Positions 9,930-18,686 of a stretch of 38,972 nt of DNA are shown piece after piece. Below the pieces are notes generated by a model. The model did not search any database. It was given only the letters and a program-made list of their open reading frames with translations, and was not told the DNA's origin. The stretch spans positions 1 through 38,972 of the forward strand of contig JAPLFP010000353.1 in NCBI GenBank assembly GCA_026390585.1, given 5' to 3'. Within the stretch, counting starts at the first letter, position 1. Each line of letters opens with the position of its first letter. The position numbers and the translations under genes are program-made. The DNA comes from Ignavibacteriales bacterium (GTDB lineage: Bacteria > Bacteroidota > Ignavibacteria > UBA10030).

Positions 9930-10790
9930 CTATTTCAAAAAATCTGGTTGCCATTTCATGGTTATGCCTGTCGCCTCGGATGAAGAATACAATCCGAATG
10001 AGATATTTTTGTCCTGGAAACGATGGAGTTCGGGAATGAGTATGCCGCACAACGCCCCTACTCCTATGCCAACCATTATGTCGGAAGGAAAATGCTGGAG
10101 CGCTTTCACTCGAAAGTATCCCAAAATGAGAGGGGGAATTGTCGCTGCCCCGTACAAAAGATATTTGTTGTCCCCTATTTCAGGATGGTAATCACTGTAG
10201 ACTTTCACCAAAAAGAACGTAGATGCCGCGACAACGCCGACATGGCCGCTGTAGAATGAATTCCGGTTATTGCCTGTTTTTCTCTGCTCATACGTAAGTT
10301 GATCATAGTACGCTGCAGGACGGATTCTATTTTGAAAGGTGGGCCCGAGAGGACTCCATTCATAAATATTCGGTGTTATAGACATGGTCTCCACATACAT
10401 GAGGAGCACGTCGGACCAATCGCGCCTGATCCGTTTATCAAACATGAGCAAAACCGGAAGAACAACGCTCGTCGCAACGGTGTAATCTGAATAATTGGCG
10501 AAGGAATTGAAGTTAGAGACGTCTTGCCTTAAAGCCCAGCTATCGATACTGTTGATGATACCTCTATTCAATGCCTGTATTTCTAAAAGAGATACCTCTT
10601 GTTTATTTAGTACTCGCGTTACTCCAAGGTAGTTTGTCGTCAATCCGACGCCGATGATAGACCCCGTTACCCAATAGTTGACATGGTAAGGATGAAATGA
10701 AGAATCACTCGACGATTGAGAATTCATCTGTTGAGCTAAACAGATGCCAAACAGAACAAGGAGAGCGAATCTGCGCCGATGAGTTTTCAT
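9930..10790 (-). CDS. PAP2 superfamily membrane phosphatase (divergent member)
   Basis: About 286 residues with a signal-like N-terminus ('RFALLVLFGICLAQQ') and several later hydrophobic segments. The three PAP2 phosphatase blocks are visible but divergent: block 1 is 'QNRIRPAAY' (RP kept, the Lys seven residues before is replaced), block 2 'SFYSGHVG' (SGH kept), block 3 'FRVKALQHFPSD' (R, H and D kept; first Ser replaced by Phe). Block 2 His, block 3 His and block 3 Asp are the catalytic core, so activity is plausible. Expected role: removing phosphate from a lipid phosphate or undecaprenyl pyrophosphate at the periplasmic face. It is distant from the four tandem PAP2 genes at 13-17 kb. Start chosen at 'MKTHRRRF', directly before the signal peptide. 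Confidence 0.85.
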   Translation of the reverse strand: MKTHRRRFALLVLFGICLAQQMNSQSSSDSSFHPYHVNYWVTGSIIGVGLTTNYLGVTRVLNKQEVSLLEIQALNRGIINSIDSWALRQDVSNFNSFANYSDYTVATSVVLPVLLMFDKRIRRDWSDVLLMYVETMSITPNIYEWSPLGPTFQNRIRPAAYYDQLTYEQRKTGNNRNSFYSGHVGVVAASTFFLVKVYSDYHPEIGDNKYLLYGAATIPPLILGYFRVKALQHFPSDIMVGIGVGALCGILIPELHRFQDKNISFGLYSSSEATGITMKWQPDFLK

Positions 10791-10865
10791 GATTTCGAAC
10801 TCGTATGTTGTAGAAAACATCAGATTATGACCATGTGTCGCCCGCCCTGATACTTGTTACACATT

Positions 10866-11960
10866 TCAGGTGTCAGAGTGGATTCCCTTTTTCGACACCT
10901 GCAGAATACTTTCGGGAGACTTTTCCGACCCGAGCAAGACCGCTATCCATTGCGTTCTCTCGCTGCTCTCAAAGGCAAACTTCAGGCTCATGGTAATGGG
11001 TACGCACAGGACCACTCCGATCGGGCCGAGCAGGCCTCCCCAAAGCATAAGAGAGAGAAAGACGACCAAGGTAGACAGTCCAAGTTGGCGGCCCATAAGC
11101 CGCGGCTCAACCACGTTTCCGAGTGTGAAGCCAACGACAAGATAACCGGCAGCGGCAAGCGCGGCGGATCCCGGACCGAGTTGAAGGAGCGCCAGCAGCA
11201 CTGCAGGGATGGCGGCCAAAATCTGGCCCAGATTAGGTATGTAGTGAAGCAGAAATGCCACGAAACCCCAGAGAATGGGAAAATCCACGCCGAGGACGTA
11301 CAACCATAATCCGATGGTGACCCCCGCGATCAGACTGATGATCGTCTTGATGATCATGTAGCGCCTGATATCGTTGACGAACTTTGTGACCTGGGGAAAG
11401 TTGCGTTGAGGATCACCCAGTACAGAACGGAGCTTGATGGGGAAGCTTGAGGCCTCTAGAAGAATGAATGTCACTGTGAGCAACACGAGGATGATGTCGG
11501 AGAGCACTGAGCTCATCCCTGCGAAGAAGCCGGCAACCAGGCTAATCACCGACCCGGGATTGAGGTATTCAGCCAAGACCTTCTCGGTGACGACCACATG
11601 CTTCGTCGCCAACAGGGCCTTGAGCGCTAACACTTGCTCGTGCATGCGCGCCTGATAGAAAGGCAAGACCTCGGAAAACGTATTGAGAGATGATCCTACG
11701 ACCGCACCGATGGTCAGCAGAAGAGTAATCATGACTGCGATAACGATCATCACGGCTACAAAAGAAGGGACGTGCTTCCGTTCCATCCAGAGGACCGGCG
11801 GCGTTCCGATGAGAGCGAGGAACACAGAGACAAGGAACAATGCAACAACCGACTGTGCCTGATTGATGCCATAGATGATGATCACGATCGCTGCCGCGAT
11901 AACGAGGAAGCGCGTTCCCCGAGATGAGCTATTTTCCTCAGCCATGAGTTTTTTGATCAT
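10866..11960 (-). CDS. AI-2E family transporter (PerM/UPF0118 type)
   Basis: 364 residues with about eight membrane segments and the family pattern: two N-terminal segment pairs, a soluble part around 95-150 ('VLPFYQARMHEQVLALKALL'), then 'LWGFVAFLLHYIPNLGQILAAIPAVLLA' (here split over the conserved IPN/G region) and 'GNVVEPRLMGRQLGLSTLVV' near the end, which are diagnostic. Members are described as autoinducer-2 exporters or Na+/H+ antiporters; the substrate is open. The start overlaps the stop of the CDP-alcohol phosphatidyltransferase gene by ATGA, so the two are translationally coupled. Confidence 0.92.
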   Translation of the reverse strand: MIKKLMAEENSSSRGTRFLVIAAAIVIIIYGINQAQSVVALFLVSVFLALIGTPPVLWMERKHVPSFVAVMIVIAVMITLLLTIGAVVGSSLNTFSEVLPFYQARMHEQVLALKALLATKHVVVTEKVLAEYLNPGSVISLVAGFFAGMSSVLSDIILVLLTVTFILLEASSFPIKLRSVLGDPQRNFPQVTKFVNDIRRYMIIKTIISLIAGVTIGLWLYVLGVDFPILWGFVAFLLHYIPNLGQILAAIPAVLLALLQLGPGSAALAAAGYLVVGFTLGNVVEPRLMGRQLGLSTLVVFLSLMLWGGLLGPIGVVLCVPITMSLKFAFESSERTQWIAVLLGSEKSPESILQVSKKGIHSDT

Positions 11961-12565
11961 ATTTTCTTTAGTCTCAAATCAGAAATCATCGCAACTGCCG
12001 AAACAAAATAGAAAATCACAAGCCAACCGAGAAGTGCCTGTGTAAAGAGATAGCCAAGGAAGGCAATCGTCGAGACTGCTGAAGCAGCTAGTACGGTCGG
12101 AATACCTGTGAAGCCCTTTTGTTTGTATGCCGTGAAATACGCTAATCGTATTGACGCTGCGCCGACATTCATAAATCCGGCGATGAGCATAGCAATGCCG
12201 TTTATCCCAACGAACCAACCAAAAACCACCGAAGCGGCAACTGCCATGAAATCCGTAAAACTATCCAGGTAGACACCCAGCGCTCCTGCGCCGATTGCTC
12301 TTGCCAACTTTCCATCAAAATAATCCAAGAGGAATTGCGTGAGGATGAGAACGTATGCAATTGCTGGATACCCCTTGAACGAAAAATAGACTGAAAAGGA
12401 AACGCACAGAAGACCAACAAGAGTGAGCAGATCCGGCCAACGCAGTGTACGAAGCTGTTTGAATATCTTGACTCCGCTGTGGCTGACTTCCCTGTCCGCA
12501 GGTTGTTCAAGAACATCTCTGTTCTCGCCAACCTGCGGATTCATCCTATTCTCCAACATTCCCAT
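11957..12565 (-). CDS. CDP-alcohol phosphatidyltransferase, phosphatidylserine synthase-like
   Basis: 202 residues, multi-pass inner-membrane enzyme. The family signature is at about 80-105: 'DYFDGKLARAIGAGALG' then 'VYLDSFTDF', i.e. D..DG..AR......G...D...D with all four metal-binding Asp present. The segment 'KQKGFTGIPTVLAASAVS' resembles the substrate-side block of PssA (CDP-diacylglycerol-serine O-phosphatidyltransferase), so that is the preferred subfamily, at moderate confidence; no phosphatidylserine decarboxylase is next to it. The start could also be ATG seven codons later (GGAG upstream). It ends inside the start of the AI-2E transporter gene and begins 10 bases after the stop of 12576-13091, so the three form one transcription unit. 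Confidence 0.85.
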   Translation of the reverse strand: MGMLENRMNPQVGENRDVLEQPADREVSHSGVKIFKQLRTLRWPDLLTLVGLLCVSFSVYFSFKGYPAIAYVLILTQFLLDYFDGKLARAIGAGALGVYLDSFTDFMAVAASVVFGWFVGINGIAMLIAGFMNVGAASIRLAYFTAYKQKGFTGIPTVLAASAVSTIAFLGYLFTQALLGWLVIFYFVSAVAMISDLRLKKI

Positions 12566-13217: not shown

Positions 13218-14060
13218 TTAGTTCAGCGCAATGCTAATGGTAAGTGGAAAGACGGAAGATACCTGGATCCGGCTGTCCTCTCGCTCATGAAGATCTACAA
13301 CCCAGGCTGCAACAAAGTAACCGAGTGATGCGCCGAGAACATTATCGGATGTCCAGTGACGATCTTGATACACTCGAGAGACAAACGTCAGACCGGCAGG
13401 TACGTATGCCGCTACTTTTAGCCAAAGCGGTCCCGCGTTCCTTGAAAGGACGGTGGATAAGGCAAATGCAATGACATTGTGCCCACCAGGAAGCGACTGA
13501 TACTCCGGTTTAGGAAAAAAGCTTGAGAATAGATGAAACGACCTTGAGCCTTCGTTGGCATAAGGTCTTGCTCTGCCAACTACGATTGCTAGCAGCTTAT
13601 CAGCGGCGCCGGCGTAGAGCAAAGCCTGCGCGATCTCACAGGCAATTTTCCTTGTTCCAATGTCGTCTGTGAGCAATGAATGTACAGCAAAACCGCCAAA
13701 GAGAAGCACCGGCGGATAGATATCCGCCCACATTTTGCCGAGTTCGATCGGAACACTCTTGTAGTATTTCTGATCTTTTTGAACTGCATCGCGAATTGGT
13801 TGATCGGCTTGCATGGCCAAAAATGCTCCGCCACCTATCAGACCAAGTTTTAGCCAATCACTCCCATCCCATTTGGTCGGTTGTTTAATAAAACTCCAGG
13901 TCTCATGTCCGAACTGAGAGAAATTGTATTTGTTCCGCTCTGCAGAATCCCGTAAAGCGGAATTCCCCTGTACGATATCCCGTGAAGCGAGGTTTTGTGA
14001 TACGAGAGAAGATTCGCAGATGATCAAAACGAGGAGTGAAAAGATAATTCTATGGCGCAT
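13218..14060 (-). CDS. PAP2 family phosphatase paralogue D (block 1 Lys lost)
   Basis: 280 residues from ATG 14058-14060, with signal peptide 'FSLLVLIICESSLVSQ' and then hydrophobic segments. PAP2 blocks: block 1 'AIVVGRARPY' (K-x6-RP expected; the Lys is Ala), block 2 'SLPGGHN' (catalytic His present), block 3 'SRVYQDRHWTSD' (R, H and D intact). Last gene of the four-copy array. Its signal peptide resembles that of copy C (15266-16063), but from block 2 to the end it is nearly identical to copy B (14141-14977), also at DNA level. A short degenerate repeat around TCCCGTGAAGCG lies in the linker after the signal peptide (about 13945-13995). Expected substrate is a lipid phosphate or pyrophosphate on the periplasmic side. 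Confidence 0.88.
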   Translation of the reverse strand: MRHRIIFSLLVLIICESSLVSQNLASRDIVQGNSALRDSAERNKYNFSQFGHETWSFIKQPTKWDGSDWLKLGLIGGGAFLAMQADQPIRDAVQKDQKYYKSVPIELGKMWADIYPPVLLFGGFAVHSLLTDDIGTRKIACEIAQALLYAGAADKLLAIVVGRARPYANEGSRSFHLFSSFFPKPEYQSLPGGHNVIAFALSTVLSRNAGPLWLKVAAYVPAGLTFVSRVYQDRHWTSDNVLGASLGYFVAAWVVDLHEREDSRIQVSSVFPLTISIALN

Positions 14061-14140
14061 TCTGTAATAGTACCTTCTGCGAAAGAGGAATATGTCTTTT
14101 GAGATGTTATGCAATGAAGAGCGTTGAGTCATCTTCCGGC

Positions 14141-14977
14141 CTAATTGAGAGTTACACTGATGGTGAGCGGAAAGACGGAAGATACTTGGATTCGGCGTTC
14201 CACTTGCTCATGTTGATCTACCACCCAGGTTGCAACGAAGTAACCGAGTGCGGCACCGAGAAAATCATCGGATGTCCAATGACGATCTTGATACACTCGA
14301 GAGACAAATGTCAGACCGGCAGGTACGTATGCTGCTACTTTTAGCCAAAGCGGTCCCGCGTTCCTTGAAAGGACAGTGGACAAGGCAAAAGCAATAACAC
14401 AGTGCCCACCAGGAAGCGACTGATAATCCTGTTGAAATGAAAAAGAGGAAGCTGAGAATGAATGAAACGACTTGGGTCCTTCGTTCATATAAGGTTTTGC
14501 CCTGCCGATCGCAATATTTGATAGCTTATCAACTGCGCCGGCGTAGAGCAAAGCCTGCCCGATCTCGTAAGCAGTCTTCCTTGTTGCCCGGTCGTCTGTT
14601 ATCAATGAAAATGCAGCAAAACCGCAGAAGATCAGCACCGGCGGAGGGAGTTCCGCCCACATTCTACCGGCTTCGATCGGAGCACTCAAATAGTATCTTT
14701 GATCCTTTGTAATTTCATTTCGAATTGGTTGATCGACTTGCATTATCAAAAATGTTCCGGCGCCTACCAGACCAAGTTTCAGCCAATCACTCCCCTCCCA
14801 TTTGATCGGTTGTATGAAGAACTTAACGGTCTCATGTCCGAACTGGGAAAAGTTATATCTATTCCCCTGCACGGTATCCCGTGAATCGAGATCTTGCGCG
14901 AAGAGGCCCGCAACCCCGAAAGAGGAAACCTCGAATATTGCCATAAGAAGAAGTGGTAGAAGAAATCTACGCCGCAT
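14141..14977 (-). CDS. PAP2 family phosphatase paralogue B (block 1 Lys and Arg altered)
   Basis: 278 residues; ATG with AGGA seven bases upstream in a leader shared with copy A (GAGGATATCC and TTTTCGTTCGTTCTG in both). Signal peptide 'FLLPLLLMAIFEVSSFG' with cleavage near 'LFAQ'. Block 1 reads 'NIAIGRAKPY': the Lys is Asn and the Arg of RP is Lys, two changes in the phosphate-binding block. Block 2 'SLPGGHC' and block 3 'SRVYQDRHWTSD' keep the catalytic His, His and Asp. It pairs with copy A in its N-terminal part and with copy D in its C-terminal part. Reduced or altered activity is inferred, not shown. Confidence 0.88.
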   Translation of the reverse strand: MRRRFLLPLLLMAIFEVSSFGVAGLFAQDLDSRDTVQGNRYNFSQFGHETVKFFIQPIKWEGSDWLKLGLVGAGTFLIMQVDQPIRNEITKDQRYYLSAPIEAGRMWAELPPPVLIFCGFAAFSLITDDRATRKTAYEIGQALLYAGAVDKLSNIAIGRAKPYMNEGPKSFHSFSASSFSFQQDYQSLPGGHCVIAFALSTVLSRNAGPLWLKVAAYVPAGLTFVSRVYQDRHWTSDDFLGAALGYFVATWVVDQHEQVERRIQVSSVFPLTISVTLN

Positions 14978-15025
14978 GAGGATATCCTTTTTTCGTTCGT
15001 TCTGTACTTGGAAAACGACGTTGAT

Positions 15026-15247
15026 CTATTTTTTTATCAAGATGAAAATGCCTGCAGCGATGGCCAGTATCCCAAGAATCGCCCCCAGGCCGTTGAAATA
15101 CACAGCCGGGACGAGTGCTACGAGACCCGAGACGATGAGCCAGATACTGAGCAGCAACATTCCTATGTTCTTCGTGACGTCCATGGACATGGTCCTTTCA
15201 TTGTGTGTTGGTTGCGGTTCTTGTGTTCCGTTTGGTGTTTCCATCAT
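15026..15247 (-). CDS. Small two-helix membrane protein inside the PAP2 array
   Basis: 73 residues from ATG 15245-15247, with AAGGAG eight bases upstream. A polar N-terminal part (about 1-25, 'PNGTQEPQPTHNERTMSMD') is followed by two membrane segments, 'NIGMLLLSIWLIVSGLVALV' and 'LGAILGILAIAAGIFILI', and ends in KK. Small proteins of this shape are common near stress and envelope genes in soil and sediment bacteria; I cannot name the family. It sits between the two PAP2 pairs, 18 bases after the stop of copy C, and is probably cotranscribed. Confidence 0.75.
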   Translation of the reverse strand: MMETPNGTQEPQPTHNERTMSMDVTKNIGMLLLSIWLIVSGLVALVPAVYFNGLGAILGILAIAAGIFILIKK

Positions 15248-15265
15248 GATCAATACTCCTTAGTT

Positions 15266-16063
15266 TCAGTTGATAACAAAACTAAAACTCAAGAGAGGAG
15301 TGCTTGAATTACCTGGATTGAGCATGTCGCTTTTCTCATGAATATCTACGACCCATGTGGCGACGAAGTAGCCGAGGGCCCCGCCGAAAAAACAACTCGA
15401 AACCCAGTGCATGTCTTCATATATCCGAGAGAATGGAGTGATCACAGCCGGCAAGTACGCGAGAATTTTCAGCCATTTCGGGCCAGCGTTCCTGGAAAGA
15501 ACAGTTGAGAGTACAAATGCTGTGGCGGTATGTCCTCCGGGAAACGAATGATAATCGTCACGAAATGAGAATGGGTGATAACTGGATATGCCTTCGTTCA
15601 TAAACGGTCTTGCCCGACCGAACGCAGTCTTTAGTATTAGGGTAATTGCTCCCGTATAAAGTGAGGCCTGCCCGATTTCATAAGCGATTTTCCTTGTCGT
15701 CATATCATTCGTTATCAATGAATGTGCAGCAAAGCCGCCAAAGAGTACGACAGGGGAATAGAGCTCACCCCATATTCTGCCTGCCTCAACCGGTATGCTG
15801 TAGAGATAGCTTCTATCCTGGAGAATCAAATCCCGAGCCGGTTGGTCGGCAACCTGGATAAGGAGAAAGGACCCGGTACTCATTACCGCGAGTTTGATCC
15901 AATCGTTTCTGTCCCATCTCGACGGTTGTTTGATGAAATCGGCCGTCTCGTGTCCGAACTGGGAGAAATCATATTTGCTTTGTGCGAAGAGAGAAGATTC
16001 GCAGATGATCACAACCAGTAGTGACAAGAGAATTCTGCACCGTGAAGAGCATTGAGTGATCAT
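15266..16063 (-). CDS. PAP2 family phosphatase paralogue C (catalytic Asp of block 3 lost)
   Basis: 265 residues; signal peptide 'LLSLLVVIICESSLFAQ'. Block 1 'KTAFGRARPF' is canonical (K-x6-RP) and block 2 'SFPGGHTA' has the catalytic His, but block 3 is 'SRIYEDMHWVSS': the Asp that pairs with the nucleophilic His is Ser, encoded by AGT at 15397-15399 on the minus strand. The other three copies have Asp here. The start lies six bases after the stop of copy A. The enzyme may be inactive or work with altered chemistry; the fold and the other residues remain under apparent constraint, which argues against simple decay. Confidence 0.88.
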   Translation of the reverse strand: MITQCSSRCRILLSLLVVIICESSLFAQSKYDFSQFGHETADFIKQPSRWDRNDWIKLAVMSTGSFLLIQVADQPARDLILQDRSYLYSIPVEAGRIWGELYSPVVLFGGFAAHSLITNDMTTRKIAYEIGQASLYTGAITLILKTAFGRARPFMNEGISSYHPFSFRDDYHSFPGGHTATAFVLSTVLSRNAGPKWLKILAYLPAVITPFSRIYEDMHWVSSCFFGGALGYFVATWVVDIHEKSDMLNPGNSSTPLLSFSFVIN

Positions 16064-16068
16064 ATTGC

Positions 16069-16926
16069 CTAATTGAGAGCTACACTGATAGTGAGTGGAA
16101 AGATCGACGACACGTGTATTCGCGATTCCTTTTGTTCATGGATATCCACAACCCAAGTGGCAACAAAGTAGCCGATTGCACCTCCGAGGACACAATCAGA
16201 CGTCCAATGCCAATCTTGATAGATCCGGGAATATGCAGTGACTACAGCAGGTACGTACACGAGCACTTTCAGCCACATTGGGTTGACATTCCTGGACAGA
16301 ACCGTTGAGATGACGAAAGCAGTTGCCGTATGTCCCCCTGGAAGCGAGTGGTGATCGTAGTCCATGAGCGTAAAGGAGGTGTATGAGGCTCTTCCTTCAT
16401 TCGTAAGTGGCCTCGCCCTGCCGATGATAGATTTCATTGTAAGAACTATAGCTCCCGCGTAAAGCGACGCTTGTCCGATCTCATATGCGATTTTTCTTGA
16501 TTTCATATCATCGGTAAGCAGGTAGTGGAGGGCAAAGCCGCCGAAGAACACGAACGGTGAATACAGTTCTCCGTACATTCTGGCTCCCTCGATCGGTACG
16601 CTGCGAAAGTATCTTCCGCTGGTTTTCAGCATTGCATCGCGGACCGGTTGATCGGCTTGCATAGACAAGAACGTTGCACCGCCCATGACGCCGAGTCTGA
16701 GCCAATCGATCCCCTCCCATTTCGTTGGCCTTATGAGGAAGTCAACAGTCTCGTGACCGAACTGGGAAAAATTGTATTTGTTCGGCTGTTCAGAATCCCG
16801 TGAAGCGGGATTCCTGTCAACGGTATCCCGTGTAGCGAGATCTTGTGCAAAGAGGCCTGCAGCCCCGTAAGGGGAAGACCCGAAGATGACGATGAGAAAC
16901 AGTGGTAGAAGAAACCTATGCCGCAT
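16069..16926 (-). CDS. PAP2 family phosphatase paralogue A (all blocks canonical)
   Basis: 285 residues, signal peptide 'FLLPLFLIVIFGSSPYG' with 'LFAQ' near the cleavage site; AGGA ribosome-binding site in a leader shared with copy B. The three PAP2 blocks are complete: 'KSIIGRARPL' (K-x6-RP), 'SLPGGHTA', 'SRIYQDWHWTSD' (S-R-x5-H-x3-D). This is the one copy of the array with every catalytic residue, so it is the best candidate for the active enzyme. First of the four, following the DUF3943 gene. Likely reaction: hydrolysis of a phosphate ester or pyrophosphate on a membrane lipid (undecaprenyl pyrophosphate, phosphatidate or lipid A type). Confidence 0.92.
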   Translation of the reverse strand: MRHRFLLPLFLIVIFGSSPYGAAGLFAQDLATRDTVDRNPASRDSEQPNKYNFSQFGHETVDFLIRPTKWEGIDWLRLGVMGGATFLSMQADQPVRDAMLKTSGRYFRSVPIEGARMYGELYSPFVFFGGFALHYLLTDDMKSRKIAYEIGQASLYAGAIVLTMKSIIGRARPLTNEGRASYTSFTLMDYDHHSLPGGHTATAFVISTVLSRNVNPMWLKVLVYVPAVVTAYSRIYQDWHWTSDCVLGGAIGYFVATWVVDIHEQKESRIHVSSIFPLTISVALN

Positions 16927-17048
16927 GAGGATATCCTTTCTTTTCGTTCGTTCTGCACTTCATGGGATCGCTCTTTTCATTGGAACAAGCCCACCCTGCT
17001 GATATCCAGAATTCCACGCCTCAACACCAAAAAGGCGTTATGGTATTC

Positions 17049-17081: not shown

Positions 17082-18686
17082 TCATTTGGTTTCTTTCTTG
17101 AAATTTTCGAAGTAGAGTTGCAGAAAGAGTTTCTGTTCGGTTCTTACCTGATGAAAATTGCCATAGTGAAGTGTGTACCGATCGCTATAGTACACCAGAT
17201 GTTCAAATCCGACACTGAGATTTTCGAACAGTCTGACTGAAATACGGGGTTTGATAAGACCGATGTAATGATCCCCTGCATCTCCCACAAACGTGTGAAT
17301 CCAGAAATAGTAACCAATGAATGAACAGTCTACCCACCCTCCAAGATTCAGCGTGCTTTCAAGTTTGGCTTCCGCCCCTCCTCCATAGTTATAATCCCTT
17401 ACCTGAGAAGTGTCAGGTCCGTAGTGAGTACTGTTTCCGGCGAACGGCACTACGCCGACATGGAAGGTTGAGTAAAGAGCGGAATTCCTGCCCAACCGCA
17501 CGCTCGAGACGATTCCGGGACCGAACCCAATGGTGCCCAATTCGAATGTGTAATTGTCGAAGAAGTCAAAATGTTGGAATCCCCCCATGAGCAGATCCAT
17601 GGCATCAGAGTGGACATTCCTGCCAAAAAGGAGTCCGTAACCTGTGATATTGTCCAGTATTTTTCTTCCCGCTCCATTAGCAAGATCAATCCTCACTTTG
17701 AAATAGTCAAAAGGCTTCCGCGACCGTACTTCAAACGGATTCCCATAGTCAAGGGTAATGTCGAAATATGTGTCTTTAGGTCCCGTCCAGAAGTTACTTC
17801 CATCGTTGACCGCACGCATCCCGCCCGACAACGTCACATTCAGCGGTTCTTGTTGATAGACATCTTCCGAGGTCACCCTGAACATTTTCCCCTGTGTGAA
17901 CCTGCTGAAAGCTCTCGTGGGAGAAAGAATGGCAACAGAACATTCCCGCCAAAATCTGTCAAACCCCGTTGTTTGATCATTGAGTATATCGGAACCTACT
18001 CTGTAAATCACTTCTCCAAGGAATATGCCATTGACCGGTGTATTGATAATGTCGTTATACGACGGGAGGGTGTTTTCCCCAAAGTACTCCCACTCCAAAC
18101 TGCCCAGAACTGCAAAAGGTGCTGATTCCCAGAAATTGTACCCGCTTGAGCGCGCAGCATTAAAAAAACTGCTCCCGGAGTACGGATGCACAATGAAGTT
18201 CATGCCAAATCTGTCTGCATCCCATTCCCAGCCAGTTTGTATGTTATGTTTCCAGGAATTGAATCCTACCCGAGAAAAATCATAGTTGAGCAAATACCTA
18301 TCGACTGCAAACGTAAAAACATTGGCTCCGGTGACCTTGAGAACAACCGTCCACAAAGGGTATTTCTTGTTGAATTCCGGCAAGTCATTCCGCAAGTCAC
18401 CGTACTTATTGGTAACAGTGTCTTGCACCTTTTTTACAGAGTCTTGCACGCGTACAGTGTCTTGCACCCTTTTTAGAGAGTCTTGCGCCCGTACGGGGTC
18501 CTGCCATGGATCTCTGCTGAGAGTCAAATCCAGGCGGGAATAGTCTGTGAAGTCCATTTTGGAGACTTGTTGTCGCTCCCCGATGATGAGGCTTGAGATC
18601 GATGGTTTATCAAGCCTTGAAAGAAACTGCGCCTGAAGAAATGCTGGACACAAGAACGAAATAATCAAAATGCATAGTGTTTTCAT
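17082..18686 (-). CDS. DUF3943 outer-membrane protein
   Basis: 534 residues. Signal peptide 'CILIISFLCPAFLQAQ'; a charged linker (about 60-92) of two 13-residue repeats ('VRAQDSLKRVQDT', 'VRVQDSVKKVQDT'); then the DUF3943 domain, recognised by 'NFIVHPYSGSSFFNAARSSG' and 'GSLEWEYFGENTLPSYNDII' (about 165-235); then a C-terminal half of alternating Gly/aromatic strands like an outer-membrane barrel ('GIVSSVRLGRNSALYSTFHV', ending 'LQLYFENFKKETK'). It is the first gene ahead of the PAP2 array. Because the PAP2 proteins act on membrane lipids and this one is an outer-membrane protein, a joint role in envelope lipid handling is a reasonable guess. Confidence 0.85.
   Translation of the reverse strand: MKTLCILIISFLCPAFLQAQFLSRLDKPSISSLIIGERQQVSKMDFTDYSRLDLTLSRDPWQDPVRAQDSLKRVQDTVRVQDSVKKVQDTVTNKYGDLRNDLPEFNKKYPLWTVVLKVTGANVFTFAVDRYLLNYDFSRVGFNSWKHNIQTGWEWDADRFGMNFIVHPYSGSSFFNAARSSGYNFWESAPFAVLGSLEWEYFGENTLPSYNDIINTPVNGIFLGEVIYRVGSDILNDQTTGFDRFWRECSVAILSPTRAFSRFTQGKMFRVTSEDVYQQEPLNVTLSGGMRAVNDGSNFWTGPKDTYFDITLDYGNPFEVRSRKPFDYFKVRIDLANGAGRKILDNITGYGLLFGRNVHSDAMDLLMGGFQHFDFFDNYTFELGTIGFGPGIVSSVRLGRNSALYSTFHVGVVPFAGNSTHYGPDTSQVRDYNYGGGAEAKLESTLNLGGWVDCSFIGYYFWIHTFVGDAGDHYIGLIKPRISVRLFENLSVGFEHLVYYSDRYTLHYGNFHQVRTEQKLFLQLYFENFKKETK
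18414..18497 (-). repeat. 39-bp tandem repeat in the DUF3943 gene
   Basis: About 2.1 copies of a 39-base unit encoding (V/L)R(A/V)QDS(L/V)K(R/K)VQDT. The plus strand shows repeated CTTGCACCCTTTTT/CTTGCGCCCGTAC patterns. In-frame, so copy-number change would lengthen or shorten a charged helical linker between the signal peptide and the barrel domain. Confidence 0.7.

What the first reader, a model, noticed from the sequence alone, without database searches (positions are those of the whole stretch)
13218..16926. Four tandem PAP2 phosphatase paralogues, three of which have lost different catalytic residues
Copy A (16069-16926) has every PAP2 residue. Copy C (15266-16063) has Ser instead of the block 3 Asp that activates the nucleophilic His. 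Copy B (14141-14977) has Asn and Lys instead of the block 1 Lys and Arg. Copy D (13218-14060) has Ala instead of the block 1 Lys. All four keep full length, signal peptides and the rest of the fold. One active enzyme with three altered siblings, each changed at a different place, suggests specialised substrates, hetero-oligomers or pseudo-enzyme regulators rather than plain redundancy.
Basis: partly seen in the sequence, partly recalled or inferred. Interest (0 to 1): 0.8.

Follow-up and report, generated by a model that had tools for sequence, protein, structure and literature searches.

The report
Tandem lipid phosphatases with altered catalytic sites
A soil/fen bacterium of the Ignavibacteria carries four side-by-side copies of a membrane lipid-phosphatase gene; two of the copies lack residues normally needed for catalysis, yet relatives in other species keep exactly the same changes under selection, so they were probably re-purposed rather than broken.

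Summary
The array is real: four full-length PAP2 genes on the minus strand at the stated places, with the named substitutions at canonical PAP2 positions. Corrections: (1) B and D are one clade that lost the block 1 Lys together, so there are two lineages of alteration, not three; (2) copy A is not fully canonical, because all four copies and two thirds of relatives have PGGH instead of PSGH; (3) the block 1 Lys missing from D is dispensable in E. coli PgpB, so D need not be impaired. The substitutions recur in related species: Asp to Ser in six C-type genes of four genomes, Asn/Lys in B of a second species. Codon models show purifying selection on C (omega about 0.2) and B (0.18) after faster evolution on the founding branches; D is the exception (0.7-1.0). 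All copies keep both His and the block 3 Arg. Every Asp-to-Ser gene also has Gln to Glu three residues before the nucleophilic His. DUF3943 (an outer-membrane 'Griddle' lipocone) is a conserved neighbour. Most likely: neofunctionalised envelope-lipid PAP2 paralogues, C and B being slow or re-tuned enzymes or lipid-phosphate-binding partners. Activity is untested.

The parts
16069..16926 (-). Copy A: PAP2 protein, 285 aa, K165/R172, PGGH, R234/H240/D244 present
   Evidence: A clade of 9 genes in 8 genomes (98/99 support); crown omega 0.18
15266..16063 (-). Copy C: PAP2 protein, 265 aa, block 3 Asp to Ser (S244) with Gln to Glu (E237), both in copy A numbering
   Evidence: Ser244 subclade of 6 genes with 100/99 support; crown omega 0.23
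15026..15247 (-). 73-aa small predicted membrane protein directly downstream of C, conserved with C
   Evidence: 64-81% identical, next to the C gene in G001, G003, G012, G013, G028, G029, G030, G031
14141..14977 (-). Copy B: PAP2 protein, 278 aa, block 1 Lys to Asn and Arg to Lys
   Evidence: orthologue with the same two residues in G003 (L014:9916-10770); terminal omega 0.18, pairwise 0.09-0.13
13218..14060 (-). Copy D: PAP2 protein, 280 aa, block 1 Lys to Ala; sister to B
   Evidence: terminal omega 0.96, or 0.73 without the converted tract
13350..13455 (-). Approximate core of a tract of D around block 2 that is nearly identical to B (gene conversion)
   Evidence: exact shared runs of 41 and 29 nt; 20-codon block at 98% nucleotide identity with 18 of 19 same-residue codons identical, against 62-90% elsewhere in B/D
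17082..18686 (-). DUF3943 (YfiM-Griddle lipocone, predicted outer-membrane) gene immediately upstream of the array
   Evidence: PF13084 E 1.6e-36; beside or a few genes upstream of the PAP2 gene(s) in most relatives; Griddle assignment from PMC12419801
12576..13193 (-). 205-aa protein without a Pfam match downstream of D, conserved neighbour
11957..12565 (-). CDP-alcohol phosphatidyltransferase, conserved neighbour
   Evidence: PF01066 E 1.2e-11; linked to the array in G001, G003, G013, G028, G031
9930..10820 (-). Fifth, distantly related PAP2-domain protein (YSGH; no block 1 Lys), frequent neighbour
   Evidence: PF01569 E 3.6e-13; sequence; neighbourhood

Best explanation
An Ignavibacteria-specific tandem expansion of a membrane PAP2 lipid-phosphatase gene that belongs to a conserved envelope-lipid module with a DUF3943 (Griddle lipocone) outer-membrane protein. 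The older pair is A plus C; B and D were added in the window's genus. C (Asp to Ser) and B (Lys/Arg to Asn/Lys) changed quickly at their founding and have since been kept by selection with their altered sites, so they are neofunctionalised. Most likely they still bind a lipid phosphate on the periplasmic face and either hydrolyse or transfer it slowly or with a different preference, or act as non-turnover partners of the active copies. D is a young copy under weaker constraint and may be a normal enzyme. Shown here: homology, fold (A and C), residue states, conservation, selection and neighbourhood. Inferred: membrane location, substrate class, retained binding, role.
For: PAP2 assignment. AlphaFold models of A and C (pLDDT 82.5 and 85.3) match B. 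subtilis YodM/PgpB 5jki (Z 18.9 and 18.7, rmsd 2.8 and 3.0 over 182-183 residues) and LpxE 6ebu (Z 17.6 and 17.2) best. Both catalytic His and block 3 Arg are invariant in 54 homologues. The Ser244 subclade has 100/99 support with six genes in G000, G001, G003 and G030. Omega: A crown 0.18, C-Ser crown 0.23 (against 1: p 7e-53), B/D crown 0.30 (p 2e-23); founding branches 0.57 (C-Ser) and about 1.9 (B/D), both above background (p 0.007 and 0.002). dS between orthologues is unsaturated, about 0.6-1.3. DUF3943-PAP2 linkage recurs across relatives, and DUF3943 operons with PAP2 are reported independently (PMC12419801).
Against: No biochemical data exist. PgpB D211A keeps only 0.07-0.1% activity and R104A 0.4-2% (PMC7413402); in G6PC1, K76N, K76R and R83K abolish activity (PMC12264158), so C and B could be fully inactive. 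PGGH in all copies would also be crippling by the PgpB S161A result (0.03-0.14%), so even A's activity is an assumption. Relaxed constraint cannot be excluded for D. Hydropathy of the helices is only moderate, so membrane topology is not certain. Gene conversion distorts branch estimates for B and D.
Confidence: 0.6

Rival explanations
1. C and B are true pseudo-phosphatases: no catalysis, they bind lipid phosphate or pair with active A (or the fifth PAP2) as regulators or assembly partners, as mammalian PLPPR/PRG proteins do.
For: Asp and Arg losses nearly abolish activity in PgpB and G6PC1 R83K is dead; altered copies are under purifying selection; PLPPRs are a precedent with no agreed LPA phosphatase activity and with homo-/heteromeric complexes (PMC9520309).
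Against: Nucleophile His240, acid/base His199 and Arg234 are all strictly kept, which a pure scaffold would not need; nothing here shows oligomers.
Confidence: 0.25
2. C is a fully working phosphatase in which Glu237 (three residues before the nucleophilic His) takes over the role of the lost Asp244; D and B work because the block 1 Lys is dispensable, or because D161-K162 one helical turn earlier stands in.
For: Glu237 is present in 6 of 6 Ser244 genes and 0 of 48 others; the DNA pattern for Tyr-Glu-Asp-x-His-Trp-x-x-Asp is absent from 391 genomes of the class; PgpB K97A is fully active; B, D and the G003 B carry D161-K162, and G001's member has Arg161.
Against: The Glu237/Ser244 pairing is one evolutionary event among about eleven fixed differences from sister C genes, so it is not independent evidence; geometry was not measured; G6PC1 does need its block 1 Lys.
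Confidence: 0.2
3. Redundant tandem duplicates drifting under relaxed selection, on the way to loss; conserved substitutions are just shared ancestry.
For: Copy number varies from 1 to 4, one sister genome (G029) has only a remnant next to its intact C gene, and copy D has omega near 1.
Against: C-Ser and B/D crowns have omega 0.23 and 0.30; pairwise B orthologues 0.09-0.13; every altered copy found is an intact frame; the degraded copies found are not of the altered types. Even for D about 3 stop mutations would be expected under full neutrality and none is seen (P about 0.05).
Confidence: 0.1
4. Misreading of motifs or an assembly artefact (collapsed or chimeric contig).
For: The genome is a fragmented MAG (379 contigs).
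Against: Motif columns are fixed by alignment with PhoN, YodM and LpxE; arrays of the same order occur in independently assembled genomes G001 and G003.
Confidence: 0.01

Closest known systems
Bacterial membrane PAP2 phosphatases: B. subtilis YodM (bsPgpB, 5jki), A. aeolicus LpxE (6ebu), E. coli PgpB
   Same: Fold (Z 17-19 to 5jki and 6ebu) and the three motif blocks with both His and Arg.
   Different: Signal-peptide-like N-terminus, PGGH block 2, tandem array; C lacks the block 3 Asp, B the block 1 Lys and Arg, D the block 1 Lys.
Mammalian PLPPR/PRG proteins (PAP2-fold pseudo-enzymes)
   Same: PAP2 paralogues with substituted catalytic residues that persist alongside active paralogues.
   Different: [quoted passage not shown] here both His and Arg234 remain.
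YfiM-Griddle (DUF3943) lipocone operons
   Same: DUF3943 beside PAP2 genes, already reported (PMC12419801).
   Different: Tandem PAP2 arrays with altered active sites are not mentioned in the passages of that paper read here.
Glucose-6-phosphatase catalytic subunit (G6PC1)
   Same: PAP2-fold enzyme; from my own knowledge (not checked here) it has Gln, not Asp, at His+4, so the block 3 Asp would not be universal among active members.
   Different: Different topology and substrate; its block 1 Lys and Arg are essential (PMC12264158).

Membership tests
PAP2 superfamily (PF01569) | Sequence profile match above curated cut-off | tested here: met
   53.5-72.7 bits against 27.2 for all four copies
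PAP2 superfamily (PF01569) | PAP2 fold as in solved members | tested here: met
   Models of A and C, best matches 5jki Z 18.9/18.7 and 6ebu Z 17.6/17.2; B and D not modelled
Catalytic PAP2 phosphatase | Block 1 K-x6-R-P | tested here: not met
   Met in A and C; B is N-x6-K-P and D is A-x6-R-P
Catalytic PAP2 phosphatase | Block 2 P-S-G-H | tested here: not met
   PGGH in all four copies; His kept
Catalytic PAP2 phosphatase | Block 3 S-R-x5-H-x3-D | tested here: not met
   Met in A, B and D; C has Ser for Asp
Catalytic PAP2 phosphatase | Phosphatase activity on a lipid phosphate | not testable with these tools
   needs enzyme assays
PAP2 pseudo-enzyme (PLPPR-like) | Substituted catalytic residues with conserved sequence under selection | tested here: met
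   B and C; D not clearly
PAP2 pseudo-enzyme (PLPPR-like) | Absence of phosphatase activity | not testable with these tools
   needs enzyme assays
DUF3943/PAP2 envelope module | PAP2 gene beside or near DUF3943 in related genomes | tested here: met
   adjacent in G000, G001, G003, G012, G043, G060 and several named Ignavibacteria/Melioribacter loci; a few genes upstream in G013, G028, G031
Undecaprenyl-diphosphatase families SepP (NF047884) and PRK11837 | Score above NCBIfam cut-off | tested here: not met
   at most 37.2 bits against 250 (SepP) and 24.1 against 229 (PRK11837)

The most novel reading that the evidence does not exclude
The C lineage is a re-engineered PAP2 active site in which the carboxylate that activates the nucleophilic histidine moved from His+4 (Asp) to His-3 (Glu), so that a protein that looks like a pseudo-enzyme is an active enzyme with altered specificity.
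Probability: 0.17. Interest if true: 0.65.

Novelty: new variant of a known kind. Interest (0 to 1): 0.42.

Why it matters
PAP2 enzymes make and recycle envelope lipids, and the need for each signature residue is disputed even in PgpB. A natural array in which sister genes differ at just these residues and have been kept by selection is a ready-made test set for which residues matter, and a candidate bacterial counterpart of the mammalian PAP2 pseudo-enzymes. It also adds a gene-level partner set to the uncharacterised DUF3943 Griddle lipocones.

Tried and rejected
Pseudogene decay of all altered copies: rejected for B and C by codon models; left open for D. Three independent catalytic losses: rejected, B and D share the Lys loss. 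Independent origin of the Glu237/Ser244 pair: a DNA pattern search of 391 class genomes gave one extra hit in G133, but it lies out of frame of the long ORF there and has stop codons on both sides, so chance. Plasmid relatives: only two distant PAP2 hits. Literature on inactive bacterial PAP2 paralogues or Ignavibacteria PAP2 arrays: nothing relevant among the listed papers. DUF3943 literature: two papers, one relevant. No coordinates of the models were available, so the distances E237-H240 and K162-phosphate could not be measured.
Full report
WHAT IS THERE. Four intact ORFs on the minus strand, in the order A, C, B, D by transcription, encode PAP2-domain proteins of 285, 265, 278 and 280 aa (PF01569 53.5-72.7 bits). 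Spacing is tight: A to C 5 nt, B to D 80 nt. Between C and B is a previously unlisted 73-aa ORF (15026-15247). The genome (4.7 Mb, 379 contigs) has 13 PAP2-domain matches. Named relatives found by sequence are mostly Ignavibacteria MAGs, many from fen samples.

ARE THE CATALYTIC CLAIMS RIGHT? Profile alignments to PhoN, YodM and LpxE put the claimed residues at the canonical columns. In copy A numbering the motif is K165-x6-R172-P173, P196-G197-G198-H199, S233-R234-x5-H240-x3-D244. C is S244; B is N165 and K172; D is A165. In 54 homologues His199, Arg234 and His240 never vary; K165 is lost in five genes (the four B/D-type genes plus one distant gene in G043), R172 in two, D244 in six.

HOW MANY EVENTS? 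The tree has an A clade (9 genes, 98/99), a C clade (11 genes, 100/99) with a nested Ser244 subclade (6 genes, 100/99: window C, two in G001, one in G003, two in G030) and sister C genes that keep Asp, and a B/D clade (window B, window D, one gene each in G003 and G001; 98/79). All B/D members lack K165 (N, A, N, G), so B and D most simply inherit one loss. R172K is shared by B and its G003 orthologue. That is two lineages of alteration, not three.

SELECTION. Codon models on 231 codons and 26 genes: omega 0.22 overall; A crown 0.18; C-Ser crown 0.23; B/D crown 0.30; each crown rejects 1 (p 3e-97, 7e-53, 2e-23). Altered crowns are slightly less constrained than the rest (0.26 against 0.20, p 0.007). 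The founding branches are fast: C-Ser 0.57 and B/D about 1.9, both above background (p 0.007, 0.002) but not distinguishable from 1. Terminal branches: A 0.12, B 0.18, C 0.17, D 0.96. Leaving out residues A190-262, which cover the stretch where B and D look converted (98% nucleotide identity with 18 of 19 same-residue codons identical in one 20-codon block), D is 0.73, still not distinguishable from 1. Pairwise orthologue dS is 0.6-1.3, so not saturated; B against its G003 orthologue gives omega 0.09-0.13. This is the pattern of neofunctionalisation for C and B. D is either relaxed or diversifying; its open frame is mildly unexpected under full neutrality (P about 0.05).

WHAT THE SUBSTITUTIONS MEAN CHEMICALLY. 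Published PgpB variants (PMC7413402): K97A 118% (C55-PP) and 298% (PGP); R104A 2% and 0.4%; D211A 0.07% and 0.1%. That paper itself reports conflicts with earlier studies. In G6PC1 the block 1 Lys and Arg are essential, R83K included (PMC12264158). So K165A in D is compatible with full activity in one enzyme and not in another; B (N165, K172) is likely impaired; C (S244) would be nearly dead by the PgpB standard. Two features of C and B/D could offset this. All six Ser244 genes carry Glu237 in place of Gln237, three residues before the nucleophile (0 of 48 others). B, D and the G003 B carry Asp161-Lys162 about one helical turn before position 165, and the G001 member has Arg161. Both are conjectures: each pairing is tied to a single clade and no geometry was measured.

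CONTEXT. DUF3943 lies immediately upstream of the PAP2 gene(s) in the window, in G001, G003 and G012 and in many single-copy relatives, and a few genes upstream in G013, G028 and G031; the CDP-alcohol phosphatidyltransferase, the 205-aa protein and the fifth PAP2 recur nearby. DUF3943 has been classified as the YfiM-Griddle lipocone, nearly always linked to an outer-membrane beta-barrel, with PAP2 among its operon partners (PMC12419801). The linkage is therefore known; the tandem array with altered sites is not described in the passages read. The A-C pair occurs in three genera of the family, and the B/D addition was found only in the window's genus.

STRUCTURE. AlphaFold models of A and C are confident over the core (mean pLDDT 82.5 and 85.3) and match membrane PAP2 phosphatases best (5jki, 6ebu). 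B and D were not modelled.

VERDICT. A genuine, selected, lineage-specific diversification of PAP2 paralogues in an envelope-lipid module. The pseudo-enzyme or specialised-enzyme reading is plausible for C and B, unsupported for D, and untested biochemically for all, including the assumption that A is active.

Noticed in passing
window 9930-10820 (-): A fifth PAP2-domain gene in the same neighbourhood, also without the block 1 Lys (Pro at that place) and with YSGH; recurs beside the array in relatives.
   Followed up: partly
window 15026-15247 (-): Small 73-aa predicted membrane protein, 64-81% identical next to the C gene in eight relatives; function unknown.
   Followed up: partly
G000:C72:21428-23150 (outside the window): A second tandem PAP2 pair in the same genome, of a different subfamily, with counterparts in many genomes of the order.
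   Followed up: no
5' ends of copies A/B and C/D (window 16860-16950, 14910-15000, 15990-16063, 13990-14060): The signal-peptide coding ends, and for A and B also the leader before the ATG, are more alike between A and B and between C and D than the gene cores, suggesting exchange of segments among the paralogues.
   Followed up: partly
L042:7908-8655, L081:5321-5446: A frameshifted PAP2 in one Ignavibacteriae MAG and a short PAP2 remnant with a stop codon beside the intact C gene of G029, showing turnover of non-altered copies (or MAG errors).
   Followed up: no
G030 contigs C70 and C84: One genome carries two separate A plus C(Ser) arrays, while its congeners have Asp in C; suggests transfer between genera or old duplication with loss.
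   Followed up: no
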